Assembly: GCF_000003605.2 (NCBI RefSeq) | Contig: NW_003143244.1 | Location: forward strand, 1-36,546 | From: Saccoglossus kowalevskii | Taxonomy: Eukaryota; Hemichordata; Enteropneusta; Harrimaniidae | Length of the DNA stretch: 36,546 nucleotides | Reading direction: 5' to 3' | Shown: one piece after another, positions 1 through 36,546 of the stretch | Numbering within the stretch: position 1 is the stretch's first letter | How the letters are laid out: every line of letters starts with the position of its first letter | Notes under the pieces: model-generated | The model's input: only the letters and a program-made list of their open reading frames with translations | What the model was told of the DNA's origin: nothing | Database searches by the model: none | Program-made: the position numbers and the translations under genes

Positions 1-299
1 AATCTAAGACAATCACTACATCAAAGTCGCCTATTCATAAATTAAAACAAACCTCCGACAAAAATGGATACATGGCCTTATGACTGAATAGAACTCATGT
101 TTCTCAGCAAAGTTCGTGAACTTAAAACCAAGTGAAAGTGTTCAAAGCATGAGAAAGTGAAATTAAAAACCATTGAAAATAAATGGATTTACAGTCATTT
201 TTTGGGGGGTAAAAATACAATGTTCAATGAAAATCGTTGAATTATATTCGATATATGCGATATATTAATATAAAAAGTATACTCAATATAAAGGAAAAA

Positions 300-597
300 G
301 GATTGTGTTCAACTATTTTGGTAGGGCTGCTAGACACTGCCATTCACGAGCGTGATCCCACTACTGCTGCTCCACACGGGAAGTTTTGCATGCTGTGTTT
401 CCACCCTGGGCCGATTCGTCCCTCATTATACAACCTGGTCGTCCTAACCTCCGTCGGGTCGACCATATTGATGCCGAGCTTAGCATGGACGCCTGATCTC
501 CATAGAAAGACAACTAACAGGACTCCCAACCTCAATCCGACAAACAACCCCGGCCTCCAAGTAACTGGATTACAGGCGCACGCCACAACGCCCAGCC
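300..597 (-). ncRNA. 7SL: SRP RNA (7SL), copy 1
   Basis: Full-length copy with a T5 terminator at 295-299. The 3' part has GUGAAUGGC where most copies have GUGAAUAGGC. It carries an extra GCA triplet (GGAGCAGCAGUAG) just before the conserved CAGUAGUGGG, unique in the array. Its TATA-like box at 621-628 is intact, but DNA upstream of about -57 is missing (junction at 654/655). Confidence 0.93.
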
Positions 598-653
598 ATT
601 TACGCATGACATTTTAACGCTATTTATTGAATAGAAGACAGTGCCATCTACGA

Positions 654-655
654 TG
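654..655. other. Upstream-deletion junction, copy 1
   Basis: CTACGAT joins directly to GAAATTAAAAACC, where full units have about 221 bp in between. The two ancestral ends share TG, so this looks like a short-homology deletion. The same junction occurs at 1147, 2354, 4215 and 18196. Confidence 0.9.
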
Positions 656-795
656 AAATTAAAAACCATTGAAAATAAATGGATTTACAGTCATTTTTTG
701 GGGGGTAAAAATACAATGTTCAATGAAAATCGTTTAATTATATTCGATATATGCGATATATTAATATAAAAAGTATACTCAATATAAAGGAAAAA

Positions 796-1090
796 GGATT
801 GTGTTCAACTATTTTGGTAGGGCTGCTAGACACTGCCATTCACGAGCGTGATCCCACTACTGCTCCACACGGGAAGTTTTGCCTGCTGTGTTTCCACCCT
901 GGGCCGATTCGTCCCTCATTATACAACCTGGTCGTCCTAACCTCCGTCGGGTCGACCATATTGATGCCGAGCTTAGCATGGACGCCTGATCTCCATAGAA
1001 AGACAACTAACAGGACTCCCAACCTCAATCCGACCAACAACCCCGGCCTCCAAGTAACTGGATTACAGGCGCACGCCGCAACGCCCAGCC
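796..1090 (-). ncRNA. 7SL: SRP RNA (7SL), copy 2
   Basis: 295-bp copy with a T5 terminator at 791-795. It has the GUGAAUGGC form and a G for A change in the 5' domain (plus strand CGCCGCAACGCC), shared with copies 12 and 28. Like copy 1 it sits in a 493-bp unit and keeps only about 57 bp of upstream DNA. Confidence 0.93.
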
Positions 1091-1146
1091 ATTTACGCAT
1101 GACATTTTAACGCTATTTATTGAATAGAAGACAGTGCCATCTACGA

Positions 1147-1148
1147 TG
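1147..1148. other. Upstream-deletion junction, copy 2
   Basis: Same CGAT/GAAATT junction as at 654, exactly 493 bp further on, so the shortened unit is itself tandemly repeated. Confidence 0.9.
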
Positions 1149-1283
1149 AAATTAAAAACCATTGAAAATAAATGGATTTACAGTCATTTTTTGGGGGGTA
1201 AAAATACAATGTTCAATGAAAATCGTTGAATTATATTCGATATATGCGATATATTAATATAAAAAGTATACTCAATATAAAGG

Positions 1284-1288
1284 AAAAA
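1284..1288 (-). terminator. Pol III T5 terminator of copy 3
   Basis: TTTTT on the minus strand directly follows the conserved 3' end CACAATCC. A run of four or more T is the usual RNA polymerase III stop. A second T5 lies about 20 nt further on in most units. Confidence 0.85.
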
Positions 1289-1583
1289 GGATTGTGTTCA
1301 ACTATTTTGGTAGGGCTGCTAGACGCTGCCATTCACGAGCGTGATCCCACAACTGCTCCACACGGGAAGTTTTGCCTGCTGTGTTTCCACCCTGGGCCGA
1401 TTCGTCCCTCATTATACAACCTGGTCGTCCTAACCTCCGTCGGGTCGACCATATTGATGCCGAGCTTAGCATGGACGCCTGATCTCCATAGAAAGACAAC
1501 TAACAGGACTCCCAACCTCAATCCGACCAACAACCCCGGCCTCCAAGTAACTGGATTACAGGCGCACGCCACAACGCCCAGCC
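1289..1583 (-). ncRNA. 7SL: SRP RNA (7SL), copy 3
   Basis: 295-bp copy with T5 terminator and complete upstream region: TATA-like box, palindrome and octamer-like motif all present. It has the GUGAAUGGC form and CAGUUGUGGG in place of CAGUAGUGGG. Confidence 0.93.
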
Positions 1584-1606
1584 ATTTACGCATGACATTT
1601 TAACGC

Positions 1607-1614
1607 TATTTATT
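1607..1614 (-). promoter_or_regulatory. TATA-like box of copy 3
   Basis: AATAAATA on the minus strand at -31 to -24 from the first G of GGCTGGGCG. The same element at the same distance precedes nearly all full copies. The placement fits TATA-dependent Pol III promoters (U6 type; plant SRP RNA genes). Confidence 0.75.
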
Positions 1615-1629
1615 GAATAGAAGTCAGTG

Positions 1630-1642
1630 CCATCTAAGATGG
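1630..1642. promoter_or_regulatory. Palindrome CCATCTAAGATGG upstream of copy 3
   Basis: A perfect inverted repeat (CCATCT, one central base, AGATGG) at -47 to -59. Many units have the weaker form CCATCTACGATGG. The position is where a proximal element would sit in U6-type genes, but I recognise no known site. The recurrent upstream deletion cuts through its distal arm. Confidence 0.4.
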
Positions 1643-1660
1643 TACCTGGCATCCACCTGG

Positions 1661-1667
1661 TTTGCAT
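1661..1667. promoter_or_regulatory. Octamer-like motif TTTGCAT upstream of copy 3
   Basis: Lies at -78 to -84; the minus strand reads ATGCAAA, seven of eight bases of the ATGCAAAT octamer. It recurs in every full spacer, in TTTGCATG or TTTGCATA context. It could be a distal activator site; being part of a repeat, conservation alone does not prove function. Confidence 0.35.
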
Positions 1668-2003
1668 GTCTGTTTTGAAGTTTACACAATAATCATTGCC
1701 CAATAACTATCTAAGACAATCGCTACATCAAAGTCGCCTATTCATAAAAACAAACCTCCGACAAAAATGGATACATGGCCTTATGACTGAATAGAACTCA
1801 TGTTTCTCAGCAGAGTTCGTGAACTTAAAACCAAGTGAAAGTGTTCAAAGCATGAGAAAGTGAAATTAAAAACCATTGAAAATAAATGGATTTACAGTAA
1901 TTTTTGGGGTGATAAAAATACAATGTTCAATAAAAATCGTTGAATTATATTCGATATATGCGATATATTAATATAAAAAGTATACTCAATATAAAGGAAA
2001 AAA

Positions 2004-2297
2004 GGATTGTGTTCAACTATTTTGGTAGGGCTGCTAGACGCTGCCTATTCACGAGCGATCCCACTACTGCTCCACACGGAAACTTTTGCCTGCTGTGTTT
2101 CCACCCTGGGCCGATTCGTCCCTCATTATACAACCTGGTCGTCCTAACCTCCGTCGGGTCGACCATATTGATGCCGAGCTTAGCATGGACGCCTGATCTC
2201 CATAGAAAGACAACTAACAGGACTCCCAACCTCAACCCGTACAACAACCCCGGCCTCCAAGTAACTGGATTACAGGCGCACGCCACAACGCCCAGCC
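2004..2297 (-). ncRNA. 7SL: SRP RNA (7SL), copy 4
   Basis: 294-bp copy of the short 3'-arm class (GGGAUCGCUCGUG, two nt less than GGGAUCGCGCUCGUG), with a T6 terminator. Upstream DNA beyond about -57 is missing (junction 2354/2355). Confidence 0.93.
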
Positions 2298-2353
2298 ATT
2301 TACGCATGACATTTTAACGCTATTTATTGAATAGAAGACAGTGCCATCTACGA

Positions 2354-2355
2354 TG
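2354..2355. other. Upstream-deletion junction, copy 4
   Basis: Same CGAT/GAAATT junction as at 654. Here the neighbouring unit also carries the 66-bp internal gene deletion (copy 5). Confidence 0.9.
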
Positions 2356-2499
2356 AAATTAAAAACCATTGAAAATAAATGGATTGACAGTCATTTTTGG
2401 GGGGGGGGGTAAAAATACAATGTTCAATGAAAATCGTTGAATTATATTCGATATATGCGATATATTAATATAAAAAGTATACTCAATATAAAGGAAAAA

Positions 2500-2729
2500 G
2501 GATTGTGTTCAACTATTTTGGTAGGGCTGCTAGACGATGCCTATTCACGAACGTGATCCCATTACTGCTCCACACGGGAACTCCGTCGGGTCGACCATAT
2601 TGATGCCGAGCTTAGCATGGACACCTGATCTCCATAGAAAGACAACTAACAGGACTCCCAACCTCAATCCGTCCAACAACCCCGGCCTCCAAGTAACTGG
2701 ATTACAGGCGCACGCCACAACGCCCAGCC
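2500..2729 (-). pseudogene. 7SL: SRP RNA copy 5, internally deleted
   Basis: 230 bp. A 66-bp block, equivalent to nt 150-215 of the full RNA, is missing at plus-strand GGGAAC/TCCG; the ends share AAC. The loss removes the 3' side of helix 6, the GUG-GAAA-CAC hairpin and AGCAG, that is, the SRP54-binding core. The T5 terminator and TATA-like box remain, so it could be transcribed but should not make a working SRP RNA. Copy 8 has the identical deletion. Confidence 0.9.
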
Positions 2730-3148
2730 ATTTACGCATGACATTTTAACGCTATTTATTGAATAGAAGTCAGTGCCATCTAAGATGGTACCAGGCATCC
2801 ACCTGGTTTGCATGTCTGTTTTGAAGTTTACACAATAATCATTGCCCAATAACTATCTAAGACAATCGCTACATCAAAGTCGCCTATTCATAAAAACAAA
2901 CCTCCGACAAAAATGGATACATGGCCTTATGACTGAATAGAAGTCATGTTTCTCAGCAGAGTTCGTGAACTTAAAACCAAGTGAAAATGTTCAAAGCATG
3001 AGAAAGTGAAATTAAAAACCATTGAAAATAAATGGATTTACAGTCATTTTTTGGGGGGTAAAAATACAATGTTCAATGAAAATCGTTTAATTATATTCGA
3101 TATATGCGATATATTAATATAAAAAGTATACTCAATATAAAGGAAAAA

Positions 3149-3444
3149 GGATTGTGTTCAACTATTTTGTTCGGGCTGCTAGACGCTGCCTATTCACGAG
3201 CGTGATCCCACTACTGCTCCACACGGGAACTTTTACCTGCTGTGTTTCCACCCTGGGCCGATTCGTCCCTCATTATACAACCTGGTCGTCCTAACCTTCG
3301 TCGGGTCGACCATATTGATGCCGAGCTTAGCATGGACGCCTGATCTCCATAGAAAGACAACTAACAGGACTCCCAACCTCAACCCGTCCAACAACCCCGG
3401 CCTCCAAGTAACTGGATTACAGGCGCACGCCACAACGCCCAGCC
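3149..3444 (-). ncRNA. 7SL: SRP RNA (7SL), copy 6
   Basis: 296-bp copy with T5 terminator and full upstream region. CCCGAACAAAA replaces CCCUACCAAAA in the 3' arm of helix 5, and AGCAGGUAAAAG replaces AGCAGGCAAAAG beside helix 8. Confidence 0.92.
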
Positions 3445-3863
3445 ATTTACGCATGACATTTTAACGCTATTTATTGAATAGATGACAGTGCCATCTACGA
3501 TGGTACCTGGCATCCAACTGGTTTGCATGTCTGTTTTGAAGTTTACACAATAATCATTGCCCAATAACTATCTAAGACAATCACTACATCAAAGTCGCCT
3601 ATTCATAAAAAAACCTCCGACAAAAATGGATACTAGTACATGGCCTTATGACTGAATAGAACTCATGTTTCTCAGCAGAGTTCGTGAACTTAAAACCAAG
3701 TGAAAGTGTTCAAAGCATGAGAAAGTGAAATTAAAACCATTGAAAATAAATGGATTTACAGTCATTTTTGGGGGGTAAAAATACAATGTCAATGAAAATC
3801 GTTGATTATATTCGATATATGCGATATATTAATATAAAAAGTATACTCAAAATAAAGGAAAAA

Positions 3864-4158
3864 GGATTGTGTTCAACTATTTTGGTAGGGCTGCTAGACA
3901 CTGCCATTCACGAGCGTGATCCCACTACTGCTCCACACGGGAAGTTTTGCCTGCTGTGTTTCCATCCTGGGCCGATTCGTCCCTCATTATACAACCTGGT
4001 CGTCCTAACCTCCGTCGGGTCGACCATATTGATGCCGAGCTTAGCATGGACGCCTGATCTCCATAGAAAGACAACTAACAGGACTCCCAACCTCAATCCG
4101 TCCAACAACCCCGGCCTCCAAGTAACTGGATTACAGGCGCACGCCACAACGCCCAGCC
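3864..4158 (-). ncRNA. 7SL: SRP RNA (7SL), copy 7
   Basis: 295-bp copy of the GUGAAUGGC form with a T5 terminator. CCCAGGAUGGAAACAC differs from CCCAGGGUGGAAACAC at the base of the GAAA hairpin. Upstream DNA beyond about -57 is missing. Confidence 0.92.
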
Positions 4159-4214
4159 ATTTACGCATGACATTTTAACGCTATTTATTGAATAGAAGAC
4201 AGTGCCATCTACGA

Positions 4215-4216
4215 TG
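4215..4216. other. Upstream-deletion junction, copy 7
   Basis: Same CGAT/GAAATT junction as at 654, again next to an internally deleted copy (copy 8), repeating the arrangement at 2354. Confidence 0.9.
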
Positions 4217-4359
4217 AAATTAAAAACCATTGAAAATAAATGGATTGACAGTCATTTTGGGGGGGGGGGTAAAAATACAATGTTCAATGAAAATCGTTGA
4301 ATTATATTCGATATATGCGATATATTAATATAAAAAGTATACTCAATATAAAGGAAAAA

Positions 4360-4589
4360 GGATTGTGTTCAACTATTTTGGTAGGGCTGCTAGACGATGC
4401 CTATTCACGAACGTGATCCCATTACTGCTCCACACGGGAACTCCGTCGGGTCGACCATATTGATGCCGAGCTTAGCATGGACACCTGATCTCCATAGAAA
4501 GACAACTAACAGGACTCCCAACCTCAATCCGTCCAACAACCCCGGCCTCCAAGTAACTGGATTACAGGCGCACGCCACAACGCCCAGCC
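4360..4589 (-). pseudogene. 7SL: SRP RNA copy 8, internally deleted
   Basis: 230 bp, with exactly the 66-bp deletion of copy 5 and nearly the same sequence, including CGAACGTGATCCCATTACTG on the plus strand. The TATA-like box is altered (AATAATTA). It is a duplicate of the copy 5 unit, not an independent event. Confidence 0.9.
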
Positions 4590-5007
4590 ATTTACGCATG
4601 ACATTTTAACGCTAATTATTGAATAGAAGACAGTGCCATATACGATGGTACCTGGCATCCAACTGGTTTGCATGTCTGTTTTGAAGTTTACACAATAATC
4701 ATTGCCCAATAACTATCTAAGACAATCACAACATCAAAGTCGCCTATTCATAAAAACAAACCTCCGACAAAAATGGATACATGGCCTTATGACTGAATAG
4801 AACTCATGTTTCTCAGCAGAGTTCGTGAACTTAAAACCAAGTGAAAGTGTTCAAAGCATGAGAAAGTGAAATTAAAAACCATTGAAAATAAATGGATTTA
4901 CAGTCATTTTTGGGGGGTAAAAATACAATGTTCAATGAAAATCGTTGAATTATATTCGATATATGCGATATATTAATATAAAAAGTATACTCAATATAAA
5001 GGAAAAA

Positions 5008-5303
5008 GGATTGTGTTCAACTATTTTGGTAGGGCTGCTAGACGCTACCTATTCACGAGCGTGATCCCACTACTGCTCCACACGGGAACTTTTGCCTGCT
5101 GTGTTTCCACCCTGGGCCGATTCGTCCCTCATTATACAAACTGGTCGTCCTAACCTCCGTCTGGTCGACCATATTGATGCCGAGCTTAGCATGGACGCCT
5201 GATCTCCATAGAAAGACGACTAACAGGACTCCCAACCTCAACCCGTCCAACAACCCCGGCCTCCAAGTAACTGGATTACAGGCGCACGCCACAACGCCCA
5301 GCC
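5008..5303 (-). ncRNA. 7SL: SRP RNA (7SL), copy 9
   Basis: 296-bp copy with T5 terminator. It is marked by GACCAGACGGAGG before the helix 6 loop, CAGUUUGUAUAAUG, and a TCTGGC start context (plus strand CGCCAGAC). Nearly identical to copy 34. Confidence 0.93.
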
Positions 5304-5722
5304 ATTTACGCCAGACATTTTAACGCTATTTATTGAATAGAAGACAGTGCCATCTACGATGGTACCAGGCATCCACCTGGTTTGCATGTCTGTTTTGAAG
5401 TTTACACAATAATCATTGCCCAATAACTATCTAAGACAATCTCTACATCAAAGTCGCCTATTCATAAAAACAAACCTCCGACAAAAATGGATACATGGCC
5501 TTATGACTGAATAGAAGTCATGTTTCTCAGCAGAGTTCGTGAACTTAAAACCAAGTGAAAGTGTTCAAAGCATGAGAAAGTGAAATTAAAAACCATTGAA
5601 AATAAATGGATTTACAGTAATTTTTGGGGTGATAAAAATACAATGTTCAATAAAAATCGTTGAATTATATTCGATATATGCGATATATTAATATAAAAAG
5701 TATACTCAATATAAAGGAAAAA

Positions 5723-6016
5723 GGATTGTGTTCAACTATTTTGGTAGGGCTGCTAGACGCTGCCTATTCACGAGCGATCCCACTACTGCTCCACACGGAA
5801 ACTTTTGCCTGCTGTGTTTCCACCCTGGGCCGATTCGTCCCTCATTATACAACCTGGTCGTCCTAACCTCCGTCGGGTCGACCATATTGATGCCGAGCTT
5901 AGCATGGACGCCTGATCTCCATAGAAAGACAACTAACAGGACTCCCAACCTCAACCCGTCCAACAACCCCGGCCTCCAAGTAACTGGATTACAGGCGCAC
6001 GCCACAACGCCCAGCC
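5723..6016 (-). ncRNA. 7SL: SRP RNA (7SL), copy 10
   Basis: 294-bp copy of the short GGGAUCGCUCGUG class with T5 terminator, full upstream region and the type II downstream spacer (TAATTTTTGGGGTGATAAAA). Confidence 0.93.
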
Positions 6017-6435
6017 ATTTACGCCTGACATTTTAACGCTATTTATTGAATAGAAGACAGTGCCATCTACGATGGAACCTGGCATCCAACTGGTTTGCAT
6101 GTCTGTTTTGAAGTTTACACAATAATCATTGCCCAATAACTATCTAAGACAATCACTACATCAAAGTCGCCTATTCATAAAAACAAACCTCCGACAAAAA
6201 TGGATACATGGCCTTATGACTGAATAGAACTCATGTTTCTCAGCAGAGTTCGTGAACTTAAAACCAAGTGAAAGTGTTCAAAGCATGAGAAAGTGAAATT
6301 AAAAACCATTGAAAATAAATGTATTTACAGTCATTTTTGGGGGATAAAAATACAATGTTCAATGAAAATCGTTGAATTATATTCGATATATGCGATATAT
6401 TAATATAAAAAGTATACTCAATATAAAGGAAAAAA

Positions 6436-6731
6436 GGATTGTGTTCAACTATTTTGGTAGGGCTGCTAGACGCTGCCTATTCACGAGAGCGATCCCACTA
6501 CTGCCTTACACGGAAACTTTTGCCTGCTGTGTTTCCACCCTGGGCCGATTCGTCCCTCATTATACAACCTGGTCGTCCTAACCTCCGTCGGGTCGACCAT
6601 ATTGATGCCGAGCTTAGCATGGACGCCTGATCTCCTTAGAAAGACAACTAACAGAACTCCCAACCTCAACCCGTCCAACAACCCCGGCCTCCAAGTAACT
6701 GGATTACAGGCGCACGCTACAACGCCCAGCC
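6436..6731 (-). ncRNA. 7SL: SRP RNA (7SL), copy 11
   Basis: 296-bp copy with T6 terminator. Marked by GGGAUCGCUCUCGUG and CCGUGUAAGGCAGUAG next to the conserved CAGUAGUGGG. Sister of copy 33. Confidence 0.93.
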
Positions 6732-7148
6732 ATTTACGCCTGACATTTTAACGCTATTTATTGAATAGAAGACAGTGCCATCTACGATGGTACCTGGCAT
6801 CCAACTGGTTTGCATATCTGTTTTGAAGTTTACACAATAATCATTGCCCAATAACTATCTAAGACAATCACTACATCAAAGTCGCCTATTCATAAAAAAA
6901 ACCTTCGACAAAAATGGATACATGGCCTTATGACTGAATAGAACTCATGTTTCTCAGCAGAGTTCGTGAACTTAAAACCAAGTGAAAGTGTTCAAAGCAT
7001 GAGAAAGTGAAATTAAAAACCATTGAAAATAAATGGATTTACAGTCATTTTTGGGGGGTAAAAATACAATGTTCAATGAAAATCGTTGAATTATATTCGA
7101 TATATGCGATATATTAATATAAAAAGTATACTCAATATAAAGGAAAAA

Positions 7149-7445
7149 GGATTGTGTTCAACTATTTTGGTAGGGCTGCTAGACGCTACCTATTCACGAG
7201 CGTGATCCCACTACTGCTCCACACGGGAACTTTTGCCTGCTGTGTTTTCCACCCTGGGCCGATTCGTTCCTCATTATACAACCTGGTCGTCCTAACCTCC
7301 GTCGGGTCGACCATATTGATGCCGAGCTTAGCATGGACGCCTGATCTCCATAGAAAGACAACTAACAGGACTCCCAACCTCAATCCGACCAACAACCCCG
7401 GCCTCCAAGTAACTGGATTACAGGCGCACGCCGCAACGCCCAGCC
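7149..7445 (-). ncRNA. 7SL: SRP RNA (7SL), copy 12
   Basis: 297-bp copy with T5 terminator. One extra A makes the helix 8 tip GUG-GAAAA-CAC, five loop bases instead of a GNRA tetraloop, which may weaken SRP54 contact. The 5' half matches copy 28. Confidence 0.9.
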
Positions 7446-7864
7446 ATTTACGCCTGACATTTTAACGCTATTTATTGAATAGAAGTCAGTGCCATCTAAG
7501 ATGGTACCTGGCATCCACCTGGTTTGCATGTCTGTTTTGAAGTTTACACAATAATCATTGCCCAATAACTATCTAAGACAATCGCTACATCAAAGTCGCC
7601 TATTCATAAAAACAAACCTCCGACAAAAATGGATACATGGCCTTATGACTGAATAGAACTCATGTTTCTCAGCAGAGTTCGTGAACTTAAAACCAAGTGA
7701 AAGTGTTCAAAGCATGAGAAAGTGAAATTAAAAACCATTGAAAATAAATGGATTTACAGTCATTTTTTTGGGGGTAAAAATACAATGTTCAATGAAAATC
7801 GTTGAATTATATTCGATATATGCGATATATTAATATAAAAAGTATACTCAATATAAAGGAAAAA

Positions 7865-8158
7865 GGATTGTGTTCAACTATTTTGGTAGGGCTGCTAGAC
7901 GCTGCCTATTCACGAGCGATCCCACTACTGCTCCACACGGAAACTTTTGCCTGCTGTGTTTCCACCCTGGGCCGATTCGTCCCTCATTATACAACCTGGT
8001 CGTCCTAACCTCCGTCGGGTCGACCATATTGATGCCGAGCTTAGCATGGACGCCTGATCTCCATAGAAAGACAACTAACAGGACTCCCAACCTCAACCCG
8101 TCCAACAACCCCGGCCTCCAAGTAACTGGATTACAGGCGCACACCACAACGCCCAGCC
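7865..8158 (-). ncRNA. 7SL: SRP RNA (7SL), copy 13
   Basis: 294-bp short-class copy with T5 terminator. The 5' domain has GUGGUGUGCGCC in place of GUGGCGUGCGCC, a C-to-U change. Confidence 0.92.
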
Positions 8159-8577
8159 ACTTACGCTTGACATTTTAACGCTATTTATTGAATAGAAGAC
8201 AGTGCCATCTACGATGGTACCTGGCATCCAACTGGTTTGCATGTCTGTTTTGAAGTTTACACAATAATCATTGCCCAATAACTATCTAAGACAATCACTA
8301 CATCAAAGTCGCCTATTCATAAAAACAAACCTCCGACAAAAATGGATACATGGCCTTATGACTGAATAGAACTCGTGTTTCTCAGCAGAGTTCGTGAACT
8401 TAAAACCAAGTGAAAGTGTTCAAAGCATGAGAAAGTGAAATTAAAATCCATAGAAAATAAATGGATTTACAGTAATTTTTGGGGTGATAAAAATACAATG
8501 TTCAATAAAAATCGTTGAATTATATTCGATATATGCGATATATTAATATAAAAAGTATACTCAATATAAAGGAAAAA

Positions 8578-8873
8578 GGATTGTGTTCAACTATTTTGGT
8601 AGGGCTGCTAGACGCTGCCTATTCACGAGCGTGATACCACTACTGCTCCACACGGGAACTTTTGCCTGCTGTGTTTCCACCCTGGGCCGATTCGTCCCTC
8701 CTTATACAACCTGGTCGTCCGAACCTCCGTCGGGTCGACCATATTGATGCCGAGCTTAGCATGGACGCCTGATCTCCATAGAAAGACAACTAACATGACT
8801 CCCAACCTCAACCCGTCCAACAACCCCGGCCTCCAAGTAACTGGATTACAGGCGCACGCCACAACGCCCAGCC
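8578..8873 (-). ncRNA. 7SL: SRP RNA (7SL), copy 14
   Basis: 296-bp copy with T5 terminator. Marked by CAGUAGUGGUAUCACGC, GUAUAAGGAGGG and GAGGUUCGGACG. The same three markers occur in copy 17, three units (2143 bp) away. Confidence 0.92.
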
Positions 8874-9285
8874 ATTTACGCATGACATTTTAACGCTATT
8901 TATTGAATAGATGACAGTGCCATCTACGATGGTACCTGGCATCCAACTGGTTTGCATGTCTGTTTTGAAGTTTACACAATAATCATTGCCCAATAACTAT
9001 CTAAGACAATCACTACATCAAAGTCGCCTATTCATAAAAAAACCTCCGACAAAAATGGATACATGGCCTTATGACTGAATAGAACTCATGTTTCTCAGCA
9101 GAGTTCGTGAACTTAAAACCAAGTGAAAGTGTTCAAAGCATGAGAAAGTGAAATTAAAATCCATAGAAAATAAATGGATTTACAGTAATTTTTGGGGTGA
9201 TAAAAATACAATGTTCAATAAAAATCGTTGAATTATATTCGATATATGCGATATATTAATATAAAAAGTATACTCAATATAAAGG

Positions 9286-9291
9286 AAAAAA
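9286..9291 (-). terminator. Pol III T6 terminator of copy 15
   Basis: TTTTTT on the minus strand immediately after CACAATCC. Units with T6 and T5 are interspersed through the array. Confidence 0.85.
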
Positions 9292-9587: not shown

Positions 9588-9610
9588 ACTTACGCTTGAC
9601 ATTTTAACGC

Positions 9611-11406: not shown

Positions 11407-11411
11407 AAAAA
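11407..11411 (-). terminator. Downstream T5, likely back-up terminator of copy 18
   Basis: The minus strand reads GTATACTTTTTATAT about 17 nt beyond the RNA body. In most units this run lies behind the main terminator; here it is the first T-run met. Confidence 0.55.
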
Positions 11412-14265: not shown

Positions 14266-14561
14266 GGATTGTGTTCAAGTATTTTGGTAGGGCTGCTAGA
14301 CGCTGCCTATTCACGAGCGCGATCCCACTACTGCTCCACACGGGAACTTTTGCCTGCTGTGTTTCCACCCTGGGCCGATTCGTCCCTCATTATACAACCT
14401 GGTCGTCCTAACCTCCGTCGGGTCGACCATATTGATGCCGAGCTTAGCATGGACGCCTGATCTCCATAGAAAGGCGACTAACAGGACTCCCAACCTCAAC
14501 CCGTCCAACAACCCCGGCCTCCAAGTAACTGGATTACAGGCGCACGCCACAACGCCCAGCC
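14266..14561 (-). ncRNA. 7SL: SRP RNA (7SL), copy 22, no adjacent terminator
   Basis: Fourth T-run-less copy. Unlike copies 18, 19 and 21 it has the usual GCAUCAAUAUGG, so its 5' two-thirds came from a different unit type: a recombinant. Confidence 0.9.
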
Positions 14562-14980
14562 ATTTACGCATGACATTTTAACGCTATTTATTGAATAGAA
14601 GACAGTGCCATCTACGATGGAACCTGGCATCCAACTGGTTTGCATGTCTGTTTTGAAGTTTACACAATAATCATTGCCCAATAACTATCTAAGACAATCA
14701 CTACATCAAAGTCGCCTATTCATAAAAACAAACCTCCGACAAAAATGGATACATGGCCTTATGACTGAATAGAACTCATGTTTCTCAGCAGAGTTCGTGA
14801 ACTTAAAACCAAGTGAAAGTGTTCAAAGCATGAGAAAGTGAAATTAAAAACCATTGAAAATAAATGGATTTACAGTCATTTTTTGGGGGGTAAAAATACA
14901 ATGTTCAATGAAAATCGTTGAATTATATTCGATATATGCGATATATTAATATAAAAAGTATACTCAATATAAAGGAAAAA

Positions 14981-27665: not shown

Positions 27666-27961
27666 GGATTGTGTTCAACTTTTTTGGTAGGGCTGCTAAA
27701 CGCTGCCTATTCAAGAGCGCGATCCCACTACTGCTCCACACGGGAACGTTTGCCTGCTGTGTTTCCACCCTGGGCCGATTCGTCCCTCATTATACAACCT
27801 GGTCGTCCTAACCTCCGTCGGGTCGACCATATTGATGCCGAGCTTAGCATGGACGCCTGATCTCCATAGAAAGACGACTAACATGACTCCCAACCTCAAC
27901 CCGTCCAACAAGCCCGGCCTCCAAGTAACTGGATTACAGGCGCCCGCCACAACGCCCATCC
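27666..27961 (-). ncRNA. 7SL: SRP RNA (7SL), copy 41
   Basis: Duplicate of copy 37 at +2896 bp (GGAUGGGCG start, GCUCUUGAAUAGG), with GCAAACGUUCCC as a private change. Confidence 0.9.
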
Positions 27962-28382
27962 ATTTACGCCTGACATTTTAACGCTATTTATTGAATAGAA
28001 GACAGTGCCATCTACGATGTTACCTGGCATCCAACTGGTTTGCATGTCTGTTTTGAAGTTTACACAATAATCATTGCAAAATAACTATCTAAGACAATCA
28101 CTACATCAAAGTCGCCTATTCATAAAAACAAACCTCCGACAAAAATGGATACATGGCCTGATGACTGAATAGAACTTATGTTTCTCAGCAGAGTTCGTGA
28201 ACTTAAAACCAAGTGAAAGAGTTCAAAGCATGAGAAAGTGAAATTAAAAACCATTGAAAATAAATAGATTTACAGTCATTTTGGGGGGGGGGTAAAAATA
28301 CAATGTTCAATGAAAATCGTTGAATTATATTCGATATATGCGATACATTAATATAAAAAGTATACTCAATATAAAGGAAAAA

Positions 28383-28678
28383 GGATCGTGTTCAACTTTT
28401 TTGGTAGGGCTGCTAGACGCTGCCAATTCACGAGCGTGATCCCACTACTGCTCCACACGGGAACTTTTGCCTGCTGTGTTTCGACCCTGGGCCGATTCGT
28501 CCCTCATTATACAACATGGTCGTCCTAACCTCCGTCGGGTCGGCCATATTGATGCCGAGCTTAGCATGGACGCCTGATCTCCATAGAAAGACAACTAACA
28601 GGACTCCCAACCTCAACCCGTACAACAACCCCGGCCTCCAAGTAAATGGATTACAGGCGCACGCCACAACGCCCAGCC
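28383..28678 (-). ncRNA. 7SL: SRP RNA (7SL), copy 42, displaced promoter
   Basis: Duplicate of copy 38 at +2895 bp, including the 21-bp duplication over its start. It differs by GUC-GAAA-CAC at the helix 8 tip, which breaks the loop-closing pair. Confidence 0.88.
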
Positions 28679-28711
28679 ATTTACGCATGACGCCCAGCCA
28701 TTTACGCATGA
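28670..28711. repeat. 21-bp tandem duplication at the start of copy 42
   Basis: Exact 21-bp copies at 28670-28690 and 28691-28711, as at 25775. Copied as part of the larger block. Confidence 0.92.
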
Positions 28712-29124
28712 CATTTTAACGCTATTTATTGAATAGAAGACAGTGCCATCTACGATGGTACCTGGCATCCAACTGGTTTGCATATCTGTTTTGAAGTTTT
28801 CACAATAATCATGCCCAATAACTATCTAAGACAATCACTACATCAAAGTCGCCTATTCATAAAAAAAAACCTTCGACAAAAATGGATACATGGCCTTATG
28901 ACTGAATAGAACTCATGTTTCTCAGCAGAGTTCGTGAACTTAAAACCAAGTGAAAGTGTTCAAAGCACGAGAAAGTGAAATTAAAAACCATTGAAAATAA
29001 ATGGATTTACAGTCATTTTTGGGGGGGTAAAAATACAATGTTCAATGAAAATCGTTGAATTATATTCGATATATGCGATATACATTGTATTAATATAAAA
29101 ACTATACTCAATTTAAAGGAAAAT

Positions 29125-29420
29125 AGATTGTGTTCAACTATTTTGATAGGGCAGCTACACGCTGCCTATTCACGAGGGCGATCCCACTACTGCTCCACAC
29201 GGAAACTTTTGCCTGCTGTGTTTCCACCCTGGGCCGATTCGTCCCTCATTATACAAGCTGGTCGTCCTAACCTCCGTCGGGTCGACCATATTGACGCCGA
29301 GCTTAGCAAGGACGCTTTATATACATAGAAAGACGACTAACAGGACTCCCAACCTTAACCCGTCCAACAACCCCAGCCTCCAAGTAACTGGATTACAGGC
29401 GCACGCCACAACGCCCAGCC
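29125..29420 (-). ncRNA. 7SL: SRP RNA (7SL), copy 43
   Basis: 296-bp diverged copy. The terminator is weakened to T4 with an A before it (CTATTTTCC). The 3' arm has GCGUGUAGCUGCCCUAUC, and the region before helix 6 is altered (UAUAUAAAGCGUCCUUGC). Probably not a main functional copy. Confidence 0.85.
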
Positions 29421-29846
29421 ATTTACGCCTGACATTTTAACGCTATTTATTGAATAGAAGACAGTGCCATCTACGATGATACCTGGCATCCAACTGGTTT
29501 GCATGTCTGTTTTGAAGTTTACACAATAATCATTGCCCAATAACTATCTAAGACAATCACTACATCAAAGTCGCCTATTCATAAAAACAAACCTCCGACA
29601 AAAATGGATACATGGACTTATGACTGAATAGAACTCATGTTTCTCAGCAGAGTTCGTGAACTTAAAACCAAGTGAAAGTGTTCAAAGCATGAGAAAGTGA
29701 AATTAAAAACCATTGAAAATAAATGGATTTACAGTCATTTTGGTGGGGGGGGGGGTAAAAATACAATGTTCAATGAAAATCGTTGAATTATATTCGATAT
29801 ATGCGATATATTAATATAAAAAGTATACTCAATATAAAGGAAAAAA

Positions 29847-30142
29847 GGATTGTGTTCAACTATTTTGGTAGGGCTGCTAGACACTGCCTATTCACGAGCG
29901 CGATCCCACTACTGCTCCACACGGAAACTTTTGCCTGATGTGTTTCCACCCTGGGCCAATTCGTCCCTCATTATACAACCTGGTCGTCCTAACCTCCGTC
30001 GGGTCGACCATATTGATGCCGAGGTTAGCATGGACGCCTGATCTGCTTAGAAAGACAACTAACAGGACTCCCAACCTCAACCCGTCCAACAAACCCGGCC
30101 TCCAAGTAACTGGATTACAGGCGCACGCCACAACGCCCAGCC
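29847..30142 (-). ncRNA. 7SL: SRP RNA (7SL), copy 44
   Basis: 296-bp copy with T6 terminator. Changes include GAAUUGGCCCAGG, CACAUCAGGC in place of CACAGCAGGC (hits the conserved AGCAG), and GCUAACCUCGG. Confidence 0.88.
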
Positions 30143-30560
30143 ATTTACGCATGACATTTTAACGCTATTTATTGAATAGAATACAGTGCCATCTACGATG
30201 GTACCTGGCATCCAACTGGTTTGCATATCTGTTTTGAAGTTTACACAATAATCATTGCCCAATAACTATCTAAGACAATCACTACATCAAAGTCGCCTAT
30301 TCATAAAAAAAACCTTCGACAAAAATGGATACATGGCCTTATGACTGAATAGAACTCATGTTTCTCAGCAGAGTTCGTGAACTTAAAATCAAGTGAAAGT
30401 GTTCAAAGCATGAGAAAGTGAAATTAAAAACCATTGAAAATAAATGGATTTACAGTCATTTTTTGGGGGGTAAAAATACAATGTTCAATGAAAATCGTTG
30501 AATTATATTCGATATATGCGATATAGTAATATAAAAAGTATATTCAATATAAAGGAAAAA

Positions 30561-30856
30561 GGATTGTGTTCAACTATTTTGGTAGGGCTGCTAGACGCAG
30601 CATATTCACGAGCGCGATCCCACTACTGCTCCACACGGAAACTTTTGCCTGCTGTGTTTCCACCCTGGGCCGATTCGTCCCTCATTATACAACCTGGTCG
30701 TCCTAACCTCCGTCGGTGCGACCATATTGATGCCGAGCTTAGCACGGACGCCTGATCTACATAGAAAGACTACTAACAGGACTCCCAACCTCAACCCGTC
30801 CAACAACCCCGGCCTCCAAGTAACTGGATTACAGGCGCACGCCACAACGCCCAGCC
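30561..30856 (-). ncRNA. 7SL: SRP RNA (7SL), copy 45
   Basis: Sister of copy 39 at +4339 bp, with T5 terminator and the same GGUCGCACCGACGG helix 6 change, but with the usual CAGUUACUUGGAGG. Confidence 0.92.
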
Positions 30857-31279
30857 ATTTACGCATGACATTTTAACGCTATTTATTGAATAGAAGACAG
30901 TGCCATCTACGATGATACCTGGCATTCAACTGGTTTGCATGTCTGTTTTGAAGTTTACACAATAATCATTGCCCAATAACTATCTAAGACAATCACTACA
31001 TCAAAGTCGCCTATTCATAAAAACAAACCTCCGACAAAAATGGATACATGGCCTTATGACTGAATAGAACTCATGTTTCTCAGCAGAGTTCGTGAACTTA
31101 AAACCAAGTGAAAGTGTTCAAAGAATGAGAAAGTGAAATTAAAAACCATTGAAAATAAATGGATTTACAGTCATTTTTGGGGGGGGGGGGTAAAAATACA
31201 ATGTTCAATAAAAATCGTTGAATTATATTCGATATATGCGATATATTAATATAAAAACTACTCAATATAAAGGAAAAAA

Positions 31280-31575
31280 GGATTGTGTTCAACTATTTTG
31301 GTAGGGCTGCTAGACGGTGCCTATTCACGAGCGCGATCCCACTACTGTTCCACACGGAAACTTTTGCCTGCTGTGTTTCCATCCTGGGCCGATTCGTCCC
31401 TCATTATACAACCTGGTCGTCCTAACCTCCGTCGGGTCGACCATATTGATGCCGAGCTTAGCATGGACGCCTGATCTCCATAGAAAGACAACTAACATGA
31501 CTCCCAACCTCAACCCGTCCAACAACCCCGGCTTCCATGTAACTGGGTTACAGGCGCACGCCACAACGCCCAGCC
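31280..31575 (-). ncRNA. 7SL: SRP RNA (7SL), copy 46
   Basis: Sister of copy 40 at +4336 bp, with T6 terminator and the same Alu-domain changes. Its downstream spacer has lost 2 bp (AAAAACTACTC). Confidence 0.9.
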
Positions 31576-31998
31576 ATTTACGCCTGACATTTTAACGCTA
31601 TTTATTGAATAGAAGACAGTGCCATCTACGATGATACATGGCATCCAACTGGTTTGCATGTCTGTTTTGAAGTTTACACAATAAGCATTGCCCAATAACT
31701 ATCTAAGACAATCACTACATCAAAGTCGCCTATTCATAAAAACAAACCTCCGACAAAAATGGATACATGGCCTGATGACTGAATAGAACTTATGTTTCTC
31801 AGCAGATTTCGTGAACTTAAAACCAAGTGAAAGTGTTCAAAGCATGAGAAAGTGAAATTAAAAACCATTGAAAATAAATAGATTTACAGTCATTTGGGGG
31901 GGGGGGGGTAAAAATACAATGTTCAATGAAAATCGTTGAATTATATTCGATATATGCGATACATTAATATAAAAAGTATACTCAATATAAAGGAAAAA

Positions 31999-32294
31999 GG
32001 ATCGTGTTCAACTTTTTTGGTAGGGCTGCTAGACGCTGCCTATTCACGAGCGCGATCCCTCTACTGCTCCACACGGGAACTTTTGCCTGCTGTGTGTCCA
32101 CCCTGGGCCGATTCGTCCCTCATTATACAACCTGGTCGTCCTAACCTCCGTCGGGTAGACCGTATTGATGCCGAGCTTAGCATGGACGCCTGATCTCCAT
32201 AGAAAGACAACTAACAGGACTCCCAACCTCAACCCGTACAACAACCCCGGCCTCCAAGTAACTGGATTACAGGCGCACGCCACAACGCCCAGCC
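31999..32294 (-). ncRNA. 7SL: SRP RNA (7SL), copy 47
   Basis: 296-bp copy with T5 terminator and 3' end CACGATCC. The helix 8 tip reads GUG-GACA-CAC, still a possible GNNA loop but not GAAA. CAGUAGAGGGAUC replaces CAGUAGUGGGAUC. Confidence 0.88.
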
Positions 32295-32713
32295 ATTTAC
32301 GCGTGACATTTTAACGCTATTTATTGAATAGATGACAGTGCCATCTACGATGGTACCTGATATCCACCTGGTTTGCATGTCTGTTTTGAAGTTTACACAA
32401 TAATCATTGCCCAATAACTATCTAAGACAATCGCTACATCAAAGTCGCCTATTCATAAAAACAAACCTCCGACAAAAATGGATACATGGCCTTATGACTG
32501 AATAGAACTCATGTTTCTCAGCAGAGTTCGTGAAATTAAAACCAAGTGAAAGTGTTCAAAGCATGATAAAGTGAAATTAAAAACCATTGAAAATAAATGG
32601 ATTTACATTCATTTTTTGGGGGGTAAAAATACAATGTTCAATGAAAATCGTTGAATTATATTCGATATATGCGATATATTAATATAAAAAGTATACTCAA
32701 TATAAAGGAAAAT

Positions 32714-33009
32714 GGATTGTGTTCAACTATTTTGGTAGGGCTGCTAGACGCTGCCTATTCACGAGCGCGATCCCACTACTGCTCCACACGGGTACTTTTG
32801 CCTGCTGTGTTTCCACCCTGAGCAGATTCGTCCCTCATTATACAACCTGGTCGTCCTAACCTCCGTCGGGCCGACCATATTGATGCCGAGATTAGCATGG
32901 ACGCCTGATCTCCATAGAAAGACGACTAACAGGACTCCCAACCTCAACCCGTCCAACAACCCCGGCCTCCAAGTAACTGGATTACAGGCGCACGCCACAA
33001 CGCCCAGCC
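32714..33009 (-). ncRNA. 7SL: SRP RNA (7SL), copy 48
   Basis: 296-bp copy with a T4 terminator offset by one base (CCATTTTCC). The base of helix 8 reads CUGCUCAGGG in place of CGGCCCAGGG, removing likely pairs. Confidence 0.87.
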
Positions 33010-33431
33010 ATTTACGCATGACATTTTAACGCTATTTATTGAATAGAAGACAGTGCCATCTACGATGATACCTGGCATCCAACTGGTTTGCATGTTTGTT
33101 TTGAAGTTTACACAATAATCATTGCCCAATAACTATCTAAGACAATCACTACATCAAAGTCGCCTATTCATAAAAACAAACCTCCGACAAAAATGGATAC
33201 ATGGCCTGATGACTGAATAGAACTTATGTTTCTCAGCAGAGTTCGTGAAGTTAAAACCAAGTGAAAGTGTCCAAAGCATGAGAAAGTGAAATTAAAAACC
33301 ATTGAAAATAAATGGATTTACAGTCATTTGGTGGGGGGGGGGTAAAAATACAATGTTCAATGAAAATCGTTGAATTATGTTCAATATATGCGATACATTA
33401 ATATAAAAGTATACTCAATATAAAGGAAAAA

Positions 33432-33722
33432 GGATCGTGTTCAACTTTTTTGGTAGGGCTGCTAGACGATGCCTATTCACGAGCGCGATCCCACTACTGC
33501 TGCACACGGGAACTTTTGCCTGCTGTGTTTTCACCCTGAGCCGTCCCTCATTATACAACCTGGTCGTTCTCACCTCCGTCGGGCCGACCAAATTGATGCC
33601 GAGCTTAGCATGGACGCCTGATCTCCATAGAAAGACGACTAACAGGACTCCCAACCTCAACCCGTCCAACAACCCCGGCCTCCAAGTAACTGGATTACAG
33701 GTGCACGCCACAACGCCCAGCC
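33432..33722 (-). ncRNA. 7SL: SRP RNA (7SL), copy 49, altered helix 8
   Basis: 291 bp. Five nt are missing between helices 6 and 8 (GGGACGGCUCAGGG), and the helix 8 tip is GUG-AAAA-CAC, so the first loop base is A instead of G and the GNRA fold is lost. T5 terminator and TATA-like box present. Same allele as copy 51; probably defective, or a specialised variant. Confidence 0.85.
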
Positions 33723-34094
33723 ATTTACGCATGACATTTTAACGCTATTTATTGAATAGAAGACAGTGCCATCTACGATGATACCTGGCATCCAACTGGT
33801 TTGCATATTTGTTTTGAAGTTTACACAATAATCATTGCCCAATAACTATCTAAGACAATCACTACATCAAAGTCGCCTATTCATAAAAACAAACCTCCGA
33901 CAAAAATGGATACATGGCCTTATGACGGAATCGAACTCGTGTTTCTCAGGATAGTTCGTGAACTTAAAACCAAGTGAAAGTGTTCAAAGCGTGAGAAAGT
34001 GAAATTAAACACCATTGAAAATAAATGGATTTACAGTCATTTTTTTTGGGGGGGGGGATAAAAATACAATGTTCAATGAAAATCGTTGAATTAT

Positions 34095-34105
34095 GTGTAG
34101 TAAAT
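34095..34105. repeat. 11-bp spacer insertion GTGTAGTAAAT
   Basis: Inserted between GAATTAT and ATTCGATATATG downstream of copy 50. Also present at 34604-34614 and 35329-35339, and nowhere else in the window. Confidence 0.85.
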
Positions 34106-34159
34106 ATTCGATATATGCGATATATTAATATAAAAAGTATACTCAATATAAAGGAAAAA

Positions 34160-34434
34160 GGATTGTGTTCAACTATTTTGGTAGGGCTGCTAGACGCTGC
34201 CTATTCACGAGCGCGATCCCACTACTGCTCCACACGGGAACTTTTGCCTGCTGTGTTTCCACCCTGGGCCGATTCGTCCCTCATTATACAACCTGGTCGT
34301 CCCAACCTCCGTTCGGTCGACCATATTGATGCCGAGCTTAACATGGACGCCTGATCTCCATAGAAAGACGATTAACATGACTCCCAACCTCAACCCGTCC
34401 AACAACCCCGGCCTCCAAGTAACTGGATTACAGG
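34160..34434 (-). pseudogene. 7SL: SRP RNA copy 50, 5' truncated
   Basis: 275 bp: nt 1-21 and the promoter are missing. At 34434/34435 ATTACAGG joins CCTTATGACC, which normally lies in the middle of the spacer; both sources have GG at the joint. Without start, TATA-like box and part of the Alu domain it should be silent. Terminator and helix 8 are intact. Confidence 0.9.
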
Positions 34435-34668
34435 CCTTATGACCGAATAGAACTCATGTTTCTCAGCAGATTTCGTGAACTTAAAACCAAGTGAAAGTTT
34501 TCAAAGAATGAGAAAATGAAATTAAACGCCATTGAAAATAAATGGATTTACAGTCATTTTTGGGGGAATAAAATACAATGTTCAATAGAAATCGTTGAAT
34601 TATGTGTAGTAAATATTCGATATATGGGATATATTAATATACAAAGTATACTCAATATAAAGGAAAAA

Positions 34669-34959
34669 GGATTGTGTTCAATTATTTTGGTAGGGCTGCA
34701 AGACGCTACCTATTCACGAGCGCGATCCCACTACTGCTGCACACGGGAACTTTTGCCTGCTGTGTTTTCACCCTGAGCCGTCCCTCATTATACAACCTGG
34801 TCGTTCTCACCTCCGTCGGGCCGACCAAATTGATGCCGAGCTTAGCATGGACGCCTGATCTCCATAGAAAGACGACTAACAGGACTCCCAACCTCAACCC
34901 GTCCAACAACCCCGGCCTCCAAGTAACTGGATTACAGGTGCACGCCACATCGCCCAGCC
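34669..34959 (-). ncRNA. 7SL: SRP RNA (7SL), copy 51, altered helix 8
   Basis: 291-bp sister of copy 49, exactly 1237 bp on, with the same 5-nt loss and AAAA loop. Private changes include GCGUCUUGCAGCCC and GGGCGAUGUGGCG in the Alu domain. Confidence 0.85.
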
Positions 34960-35393
34960 ATTTACGCATGACATTTTAACGCTATTTATTGAATAGAAGA
35001 CAGTGCCATCTACGATGATACCTGGCATCCAACTGGTTTGCATATTTGTTTTGAAGTTTACACAATAATCATTGCCCAATAACTATCTAAGACAATCTCT
35101 ACATCAAAGTCGCCTATTCATAAAAACAAACCTCCGACAAAAATGGATACATGGCCTTATGACGGAATCGAACTCGTGTTTCTCAGCATAGTTCGTGAAC
35201 TTAAAACCAAGTGAAAGTGTTCAAAGCGTGAGAAAGTGAAATTAAACACCATTGAAAATAAATGGATTTACAGTCATTTTTGGGGGGGGGGATAAAAATA
35301 CAATGTTCAATGAAAATCGTTGAATTATGTGTAGTAAATATTCGATATATGCGATATATTAATATAAAAAGTATACTCAATATAAAGGAAAAA

Positions 35394-35689
35394 GGATTGT
35401 GTTCAACTATTTTGGTAGGGCTGCTAGACGCTGCCTATTCACGAGCGCGATCCCACTACTGCTCCACACGGGAACTTTTGCCTGCTGTGTTTCCACCCTG
35501 GGCCGATTCGTCCCTCATTATACAACCTGGTCGTCCTAACCTCCGTCGGGAAGACCATATTGATGCCGAGATTAGCATGGACGCCTGATCTCCATAGAAA
35601 GACGACTAACAGGACTCCCAACTTCAACCCGTCCAACAACCCCGCCCTCCAAGTAACTGGAATACAGGCGCTCGCCACAACGCCCAGCC
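35394..35689 (-). ncRNA. 7SL: SRP RNA (7SL), copy 52
   Basis: 296-bp copy with T5 terminator. Alu-domain changes: GGCGAGCGCCUGUAUUCC and GGAGGGCGGGG; helix 6 entry AAUAUGGUCUUCCCGACGG. Diverged, function doubtful. Confidence 0.87.
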
Positions 35690-36111
35690 ATTTACGCCTG
35701 ACATTTTAACGTTATTTATTGAAAAGAAGACAGTGCCATCTACGATGGGACCTGGCATCCACCTGGTTTGCTTGTCTGTTTGAAGTTTACACAATAATCA
35801 TTGCCCAATAACTATCTAAGACAATCACTACATCAAAGTCGCCTATTCATAAAAACAAACCTCCGACAAAAATGGATACATGGCCTGATGACTGAATAGA
35901 ACTTATGTTTCTCAGCAGAGTTCGTGAACTTAAAACCAAGTGAAAGTGTTCAAAGCATGAGAAAGTGAAATTAAAAACCATTGAAAATAAATGGATTTAC
36001 AGTCATTTGGTGGGGGGGGGGGTAAAAATACAATGTTCAATGAAAATCGTTGAATTATGTTCAATATATGCGATACATTAATATAAAAGTATACTCAATA
36101 TAAAGGAAAAA

Positions 36112-36387
36112 GGATCGTGTTCAACTTTTTTGGTAGGGCTGCTAGACGATGCCTATTCACGAGCGCGATCCCACTACTGCTCCACACGGGAACTTTTGCC
36201 TGCTGTGTTTCCACCCTGGGTCGATTCGTCCCTCATTATACAACCTGGGTCGTCCCAACCTCCGTTCGGTCGACCATATTGATGCCGAGCTTAACATGGA
36301 CGCCTGATCTCCATAGAAAGACGATTAACATGACTCCCAACCTCAACCCGTCCAACAACCCCGGCCTCCAAGTAACTGGATTACAGG
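36112..36387 (-). pseudogene. 7SL: SRP RNA copy 53, 5' truncated
   Basis: 276 bp, with the same ACAGG/CCTTATGACC junction as copy 50. The downstream spacer is of the copy 49 type (GAATTATGTTCAATATATGCG), so this unit is a recombinant of the two types. Confidence 0.9.
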
Positions 36388-36546
36388 CCTTATGACCGAA
36401 TAGAGCTCATGTTTCTCAGCAGATTTCGTGAACTTAAAACCAAGTGAAAGTTTTCAAGAATGAGAAAATGAATTAAACGCCATTGAAATAAATGGATTTA
36501 CAGTCATTTTGGGGGAATAAAATACAATGTTCAATAGAATCGTTGA
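36388..36546. other. Partial next unit at the window end
   Basis: Spacer from CCTTATGACC through a short G tract to ATCGTTGA, matching 34435-34600 with several single-base losses. The array continues past the window. Confidence 0.85.

What the first reader, a model, noticed from the sequence alone, without database searches (positions are those of the whole stretch)
1..36546. A 36-kb 'satellite' that is a tandem array of 53 SRP RNA (7SL) genes
Each unit contains on the minus strand an RNA gene collinear with animal 7SL over its whole length, with helix 6 GGAG, helix 8 GAAA/AGCAG, a TATA-like box and a T-run terminator. Human functional 7SL genes are few; more than 50 head-to-tail copies with regular spacing is an rDNA-like arrangement that is unusual for this RNA. 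An ORF- or repeat-based annotation would miss it or label it satellite or Alu.
Basis: partly seen in the sequence, partly recalled or inferred. Interest (0 to 1): 0.93.

Follow-up and report, generated by a model that had tools for sequence, protein, structure and literature searches.

The report
Tandem array of SRP RNA genes
An animal genome carries a long head-to-tail array of genes for the RNA of the signal recognition particle; the array is real and larger than the window, but its copies show little sign of being kept intact one by one, so it is probably a redundant amplification and not a second rDNA.

Summary
All 53 covariance-model matches are Metazoa_SRP, all on the minus strand, in one 36.5-kb contig. 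A second contig (72.8 kb) holds 107 more, making 160 copies; neither contig reaches a flank. Genome-wide pattern counts leave only one single full-length gene (C4562) and one 5'-truncated copy (C1732) outside the array, as far as the patterns reach. Most units carry an upstream 17-mer whose 91 exact matches all lie at SRP genes, a TATA-like box and a T-run.

The rDNA-like functional reading is only partly supported. Among 158 units the gene varies as much as the spacer or more. Gene variants break helices as often as chance (47.3% against 46.8%), and the array consensus folds less stably than the single gene. 5S arrays of the same genome are more homogeneous, though only weakly quieter in the gene. 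Gene and promoter elements are shared with the single gene while outer flanks are unrelated, so the founder was a real gene.

Tandem SRP RNA arrays are already mentioned for Hydractinia echinata (PMC11067881 passages).

The parts
1..36546 (-). Whole contig C3417: tandem array of SRP RNA gene units; both ends lie inside spacer, so the array is cut by the contig ends
14263..14560 (-). Best-scoring SRP RNA gene of the window (251.1 bits, 298 nt)
   Evidence: with alignment; 51 of 53 copies score 187.3-251.1 bits
2497..2728 (-). SRP RNA copy with a 64-nt internal deletion (gene positions about 149-212, part of the S domain)
4357..4588 (-). Second copy of the same 64-nt deletion type; two more lie on contig C2369
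34157..34435 (-). Copy lacking the first 19 nt and the upstream promoter elements
36109..36388 (-). Second copy lacking 5' end and promoter elements
14598..14614 (-). Example of the upstream element TAGATGGCACTGTCTTC at -54..-38; 91 exact genome-wide matches to the 17-mer, 90 on the array contigs and one at the single gene C4562
14582..14593 (-). Example of the TATA-like box CAATAAATAGCG at -33..-22
   Evidence: sequence, offset
14561..14977 (.). Typical long spacer (417 bp)
   Evidence: a spacer 24-mer (up to 2 mismatches) has 136 matches in the genome, 47 + 89 on the two array contigs
158..1641 (-). Run of short-spacer units (period 493): about 222 bp of spacer upstream of the 17-mer are missing, the promoter elements are kept
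   Evidence: 22 of 158 units lack this stretch
29122..36546 (-). More decayed end of the window array (7-19 gene substitutions from consensus per copy against 1-9 in the other window units examined)

Best explanation
A second, genuine SRP RNA (7SL) gene, distinct from the single gene on C4562, became the founder of a tandem array that grew by unequal exchange to at least 160 units on at least 109 kb. Shown: a typical unit has the layout of a complete Pol III transcription unit (upstream 17-mer at -54, TATA-like box at -33, full SRP RNA, T-run); array and single gene share gene and promoter elements but not outer flanks; among the copies gene, promoter and spacer vary alike. Inferred: the copies are redundant and individually dispensable; the single C4562 gene (best score, most stable fold, 10-T run against 5 or 6 in most array copies) is the best kept SRP RNA gene; some of the 77 of 160 landmark-complete array copies are probably still transcribed and may add SRP RNA, but the array is not maintained copy by copy.
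For: Copies: 53 + 107 = 160. Inventory: a helix 8 23-mer with up to 3 mismatches occurs 157 times in the genome, = 50 + 105 on the array contigs + 1 (C4562) + 1 (C1732) (reversed control pattern 0). Single gene 259.3 bits, array 123.5-251.1. MFE -112.3 (single) against -99.8 (array consensus); 76.5% of 1000 random 10-change versions of the single gene are at least as stable as the array consensus. Gene variants: 203 distinct, 47.3% pair-breaking against 46.8% expected. Mean difference from consensus over 158 units: gene 1.88%, spacer 1.98%. Founder was a gene: 10 of 298 gene positions differ from the single gene, against 9 of 65 alignable promoter positions (Fisher P 0.002), and outer flanks do not align. 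Unequal exchange: two spacer classes on both contigs, a shared 64-nt deletion type at 2 places on each contig, no run of 3 or more units copied at 99.3% identity.
Against: Redundancy alone would also hide selection on single copies, so neutral variation does not prove dispensability. The 5S control is weak: by distinct variants per site the 5S gene is above its spacer in one stretch (0.051 against 0.032) and only somewhat below in the other two (0.051 against 0.061, 0.026 against 0.041), on 10-25 units. Variants present in 10 or more copies break pairs less often than expected (25% against 42%, P 0.05, n = 20), and three landmark motifs are exact in 404 of 480 cells where drift of 1.88% per site predicts about 378 (copies are related, so no P value): both hint at weak selection. 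CpG sites are not clearly hypermutable, so there is no good sign of methylation-based silencing, although the array consensus has 18 CpG against 21 in the single gene. Gene conversion limited to the gene could mimic past constraint. No RNA data.
Confidence: 0.55

Rival explanations
1. rDNA-like working array: the 160 or more copies are the main source of SRP RNA, kept by concerted evolution; variation per copy is tolerated because dose is high.
For: Promoter 17-mer within 1 mismatch in 154 of 160, TATA-like box in 156 of 160, T-run within 40 nt in 160 of 160; all landmarks in 77 of 160; gene and promoter stayed close to the single gene while surroundings diverged; only one other full-length gene found in the assembly; 5S arrays of the genome also show little gene constraint by variant count.
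Against: Gene not less variable than spacer; structure ignored by variants; SRP gene diversity about 0.03 whereas the 5S gene has 0.004-0.008; promoter retention is what drift predicts (0.956 and 0.977 expected; 154 and 156 of 160 seen).
Confidence: 0.3
2. Silent satellite: a 7SL-derived satellite DNA, transcriptionally dead, whose unit happens to be a whole gene.
For: Alike variation in gene, promoter and spacer; less stable consensus fold; 4 of 160 copies without part of the S domain and 2 without promoter.
Against: Promoter elements, gene and T-run are intact in the consensus; no clear CpG hypermutation.
Confidence: 0.12
3. Assembly artefact: false expansion of one locus.
For: Two contigs that consist of array only, no flanks.
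Against: Units differ from each other by about 3%; the longest exact match between the contigs is 1258 bp, within C2369 1305 bp, and within the window none reaches 1000 bp, so units were not copied by the assembler.
Confidence: 0.03

Closest known systems
Tandem SRP RNA arrays in Hydractinia echinata (Genome Res 2024, PMC11067881; passages seen)
   Same: Evenly spaced, highly similar tandem copies; the draft H. [quoted passage not shown]
   Different: Another animal lineage; the passages seen give no unit anatomy, copy count or selection test for SRP RNA; supplements not read
Metazoan SRP RNA (7SL), Rfam RF00017
   Same: Full-length match with Alu and S domain, helix 6 GGAG and helix 8 motifs
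   Different: Human has three 7SL loci (PMC7073466 passage), Didemnum vexillum one copy found (PMC5006418 passage); here 160 array copies plus one single gene
5S rRNA tandem arrays of the same genome (stretches of C3485, C3801, C2212)
   Same: Head-to-tail Pol III gene and spacer units
   Different: 5S gene pi 0.004-0.008, spacer 0.006-0.016; SRP gene 0.0334, spacer 0.0308, or 0.0322 and 0.0226 without homopolymers and without the last 65 bp, which have 0.0522
7SL-derived SINEs (Alu, recalled; hagfish SINE1-1, PMC7245038 passages)
   Same: 7SL-derived repeated DNA
   Different: Hagfish SINE1-1 has 2363 full-length insertions built on an internally deleted 7SL with a 3' microsatellite; here full-length genes with upstream elements, tandem, on two contigs

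Membership tests
Metazoa_SRP (RF00017) | Covariance-model score above the gathering score over the full model | tested here: met
   53 of 53 window matches, model 1-299, 123.5-251.1 bits; 107 on C2369, three of them cut by the ends of the fetched pieces
Metazoa_SRP (RF00017) | Alu domain (UGUAAU) and S domain (helix 6 GGAG, helix 8 GGAAA/AGCAG) both present | tested here: met
   Exact motifs in 160 copies: UGUAAU 10-mer 140, CGGAG 154, helix 8 18-mer 124; 4 copies lack helix 8
Metazoa_SRP (RF00017) | Transcribed and assembled with SRP proteins | not testable with these tools
   No RNA or protein-binding data
Pol III gene with upstream elements | TATA-like box near -30, an upstream element and a T-run terminator | tested here: met
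   Sequence only: TATA-like box 156 of 160, 17-mer 154 of 160, T-run within 40 nt 160 of 160; the 17-mer matches exactly only on the SRP contigs, 91 of 91. Transcription by Pol III not tested
rDNA-like concerted functional array | Gene more conserved than spacer among copies | tested here: not met
   pi 0.0334 against 0.0308; 0.0322 against 0.0226 without homopolymers and the last 65 bp; ratio 1.17, interval 0.79-1.75, on 143 units without the decayed window end
rDNA-like concerted functional array | Close homogeneity of copies | tested here: not met
   Median unit identity 96.8%; 5S stretches pi 0.004-0.016
7SL-derived SINE | Dispersed copies of the Alu-domain part with a tail | tested here: not met
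   Full length and tandem; 136 of 136 spacer 24-mer matches and 155 of 157 helix 8 matches lie on two contigs. A SINE made of the Alu part alone elsewhere in the genome was not searched for

The most novel reading that the evidence does not exclude
The animal makes most of its SRP RNA from an rDNA-like array of at least 160 heterogeneous 7SL genes driven by an SRP-specific upstream element, with selection acting only on the array as a whole; the raised variant rate in the gene and the G>T over C>A bias (37:14 against 12:15 in the spacer, uncorrected P 0.026, one of six classes) would then be marks of heavy transcription.
Probability: 0.27. Interest if true: 0.62.

Novelty: new member of a known kind. 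Interest (0 to 1): 0.45.

Why it matters
SRP RNA is usually made from one to a few genes (human three; Didemnum one). A whole-gene array of 160 copies beside one well-kept single gene is a natural test of how much redundancy a structural RNA gene can carry: whether variant SRP RNAs reach the particle, and whether selection acts on single copies or only on the pool. It also shows that repeat labels can hide complete RNA genes.

Tried and rejected
Alu or SINE origin: rejected for the array, whose copies are full length with upstream elements. Near-identical alleles: C3417 and C2369 share at most 1258 bp of exact sequence; whether they are adjacent pieces or diverged haplotypes is open. Higher-order repeats: no run of 3 or more units at 99.3% or more. 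CpG decay as a sign of silencing: not clear (C>T 0.41 per CpG site against 0.38 elsewhere in the gene, G>A 0.47 against 0.38). Promoter constraint inside the array: not seen. Frequency-spectrum test of gene against spacer: not significant (P 0.17). U6 promoters as a source of the 17-mer: not seen by eye upstream of 3 U6 loci, no exact match outside SRP genes. Asymmetron (lancelet) as host: rejected on gene order read by eye against PMC2034537 passages. tRNA genes in the window: none found. ORFs of 90 aa or more: 27 listed, none studied.

Literature: searched for tandem 7SL/SRP RNA or for it in likely hosts; the only animal array met was Hydractinia. No claim is made that none other is in print. 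PMC9734144 and PMC5994713 were looked into by passages and do not bear on it.

Full report
What is there. The window is a complete contig, C3417, of a 572-Mb genome in 4830 contigs. cmscan found 53 matches above threshold, all Metazoa_SRP, all on the minus strand, all aligned over the model's full length. Four of the 53 are damaged in kind: two have a 64-nt internal deletion and two lack the first 19 nt with the promoter elements. Spacing in the window is mostly 707-742 bp, with a class of about 493-504 bp. The short class (period 493) lacks about 222 bp of spacer directly upstream of the promoter elements; 22 of 158 units lack this stretch.

The array is larger than the window. Contig C2369 (72,765 bp), fetched in full, holds 107 copies in the same orientation (three are cut by piece ends). 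Neither contig reaches a flank. An exact 22-mer gave 85 matches on the same four contigs. So the assembly holds the array, one single full-length gene (C4562:44764-45061, 259.3 bits) and one copy on C1732 whose similarity starts at gene position 50, although cmscan still spans the whole model there (187.7 bits). Copies more diverged than these patterns allow, or without helix 8, would be missed. The Rfam search of the whole genome scored only 26 of 1274 candidates, so its count was not used.

Anatomy. On the RNA strand a typical unit has TAGATGGCACTGTCTTC at -54, CAATAAATAGCG at -33, the 298-nt gene, a run of 5 or 6 T, and spacer. In 160 copies: 17-mer within one mismatch 154, TATA-like box 156, UGUAAU 10-mer 140, helix 6 CGGAG 154, helix 8 18-mer 124, T-run within 12 nt 152 and within 40 nt 160. 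77 of 160 pass all landmarks of the script, which also asked for a further 10-mer and used a stricter terminator rule. The 17-mer with A or G at one place has 91 exact genome-wide matches, 90 on the array contigs and one at C4562; the reversed control has none. I take it as an SRP-specific upstream element; its likeness to any known factor site was not tested.

Relation to the single gene. Array consensus and C4562 gene differ at 10 of 298 positions. Promoter segments that align differ at 9 of 65, plus two single-base gaps and a 13-bp change in the spacing of the two elements; Fisher P 0.002. Beyond -66 in the array (-79 at the single gene) and past the T-run nothing aligned (200 bp up and 60 bp down, 500 bp each side against both contigs, best 12 rows printed). 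Seven of the ten differences are array-specific when the C1732 copy is the third sequence, two (112, 245) are specific to C4562, and one (49) is not covered (read by eye). This suggests that the founder of the array was a gene under constraint for much of the time since it split from the C4562 line; conversion of the gene part alone is an alternative I cannot exclude.

Selection within the array. Over 158 units nucleotide diversity is 0.0334 in the gene and 0.0308 in the spacer. Without homopolymers it is 0.0322 in the gene, 0.0226 in the spacer short of its last 65 bp, and 0.0522 in those 65 bp. Without the decayed window end, 143 units, the ratio is 1.17 with bootstrap interval 0.79-1.75. 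Adjusted for base composition the gene has 1.39 times the spacer's distinct variants and the core promoter 1.18 times. None of the 158 units has the consensus gene. Of 203 distinct gene variants 47.3% break a model pair against 46.8% for matched random sites; mean change in folding energy 0.105 against 0.215 +- 0.123 (P 0.19). Only the 20 variants in 10 or more copies lean the other way (25% against 42%, P 0.05). The array consensus folds at -99.8 kcal/mol, the single gene at -112.3, and 76.5% of random versions with the same ten kinds of change are at least as stable as the consensus. Of 120 model pairs 97 are standard in the single gene and 94 in the array consensus.

Control. The same genome has 5S rRNA in tandem arrays with two unit lengths (47 of 18,217 candidates scored). 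In three stretches (25, 14 and 10 units) gene pi was 0.0041, 0.0073, 0.0078 and spacer pi 0.0059, 0.0155, 0.0116. By distinct variants per site the contrast is absent or small: gene 0.051, 0.051, 0.026 and spacer 0.032, 0.061, 0.041, so in the first stretch the gene is above the spacer. The control therefore shows clearly that 5S copies are more alike than SRP copies, and only weakly that a working Pol III array must have a quiet gene. U2, for comparison, gave 7 matches (46 of 21,877 candidates scored).

How it most likely works. A second SRP RNA gene amplified by unequal exchange; the signs are the two spacer classes on both contigs and the same deletion type at two places on each, and the lack of longer block copies. 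After that, gene, promoter and spacer vary alike. I infer redundancy and no copy-by-copy maintenance. Whether array RNA reaches the particle is undecided; an rDNA-like working array is the main rival. CpG sites are not clearly hypermutable, which gives no support for germline silencing by methylation; the array consensus has 18 CpG, the single gene 21.

Host. Contig C4830 carries a mitochondrial COX1 (Pfam). The other gene names I assigned by eye from translations: ATP6-COX3-ND3-ND4L-ND4-ND5-CYTB, ND2 and ND1 on one strand, COX1 and ND6 on the other. In the nine genes counted, AGA occurs 5 times and AGG never, and TGA occurs in frame in all nine. From recall, AAA falls at Lys places, AGA at a Ser place in cytochrome b, and ATA at Ile places in COX1, which would fit an invertebrate deuterostome, perhaps a hemichordate.

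Known or new. Human has three 7SL loci (PMC7073466, passage); for Schistosoma mansoni eight candidates were reported (PMC2770079, passages), for Didemnum vexillum one (PMC5006418, passages). The Hydractinia genome paper says that the H. [quoted passage not shown] So the kind is known; this is a further member, in what seems another phylum, with anatomy and a selection test. Searches made.

Noticed in passing
G000:C3485 (L043-L045), C3801 (L046-L048), C2212 (L049-L050): 5S rRNA sits in tandem arrays of two kinds with different unit lengths (about 1139 and 1578 bp).
   Followed up: partly
L038:4005-4292 (G000:C1732): An SRP RNA copy whose similarity starts only at gene position 50, followed by a run of 12 T; carries mostly single-gene states, origin unclear.
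   Followed up: partly
window array genes and C2369 genes: The gene has more distinct variants than spacer base rates predict (1.39 times) and more G>T than C>A (37:14) where the spacer has 12:15 (uncorrected P 0.026, one of six classes tested).
   Followed up: partly
window 29122-36546: Array copies are more decayed towards this contig end, as if near the edge of the array.
   Followed up: no
L036:1-660 (G000:C4830): The mitochondrial contig starts with a tandem repeat of about 140 bp with an inverted-repeat core, seen by eye.
   Followed up: no
window 14598-14614 and equivalents: The upstream 17-mer looks like the core of CTCF or YY1 sites (recalled, not tested).
   Followed up: no
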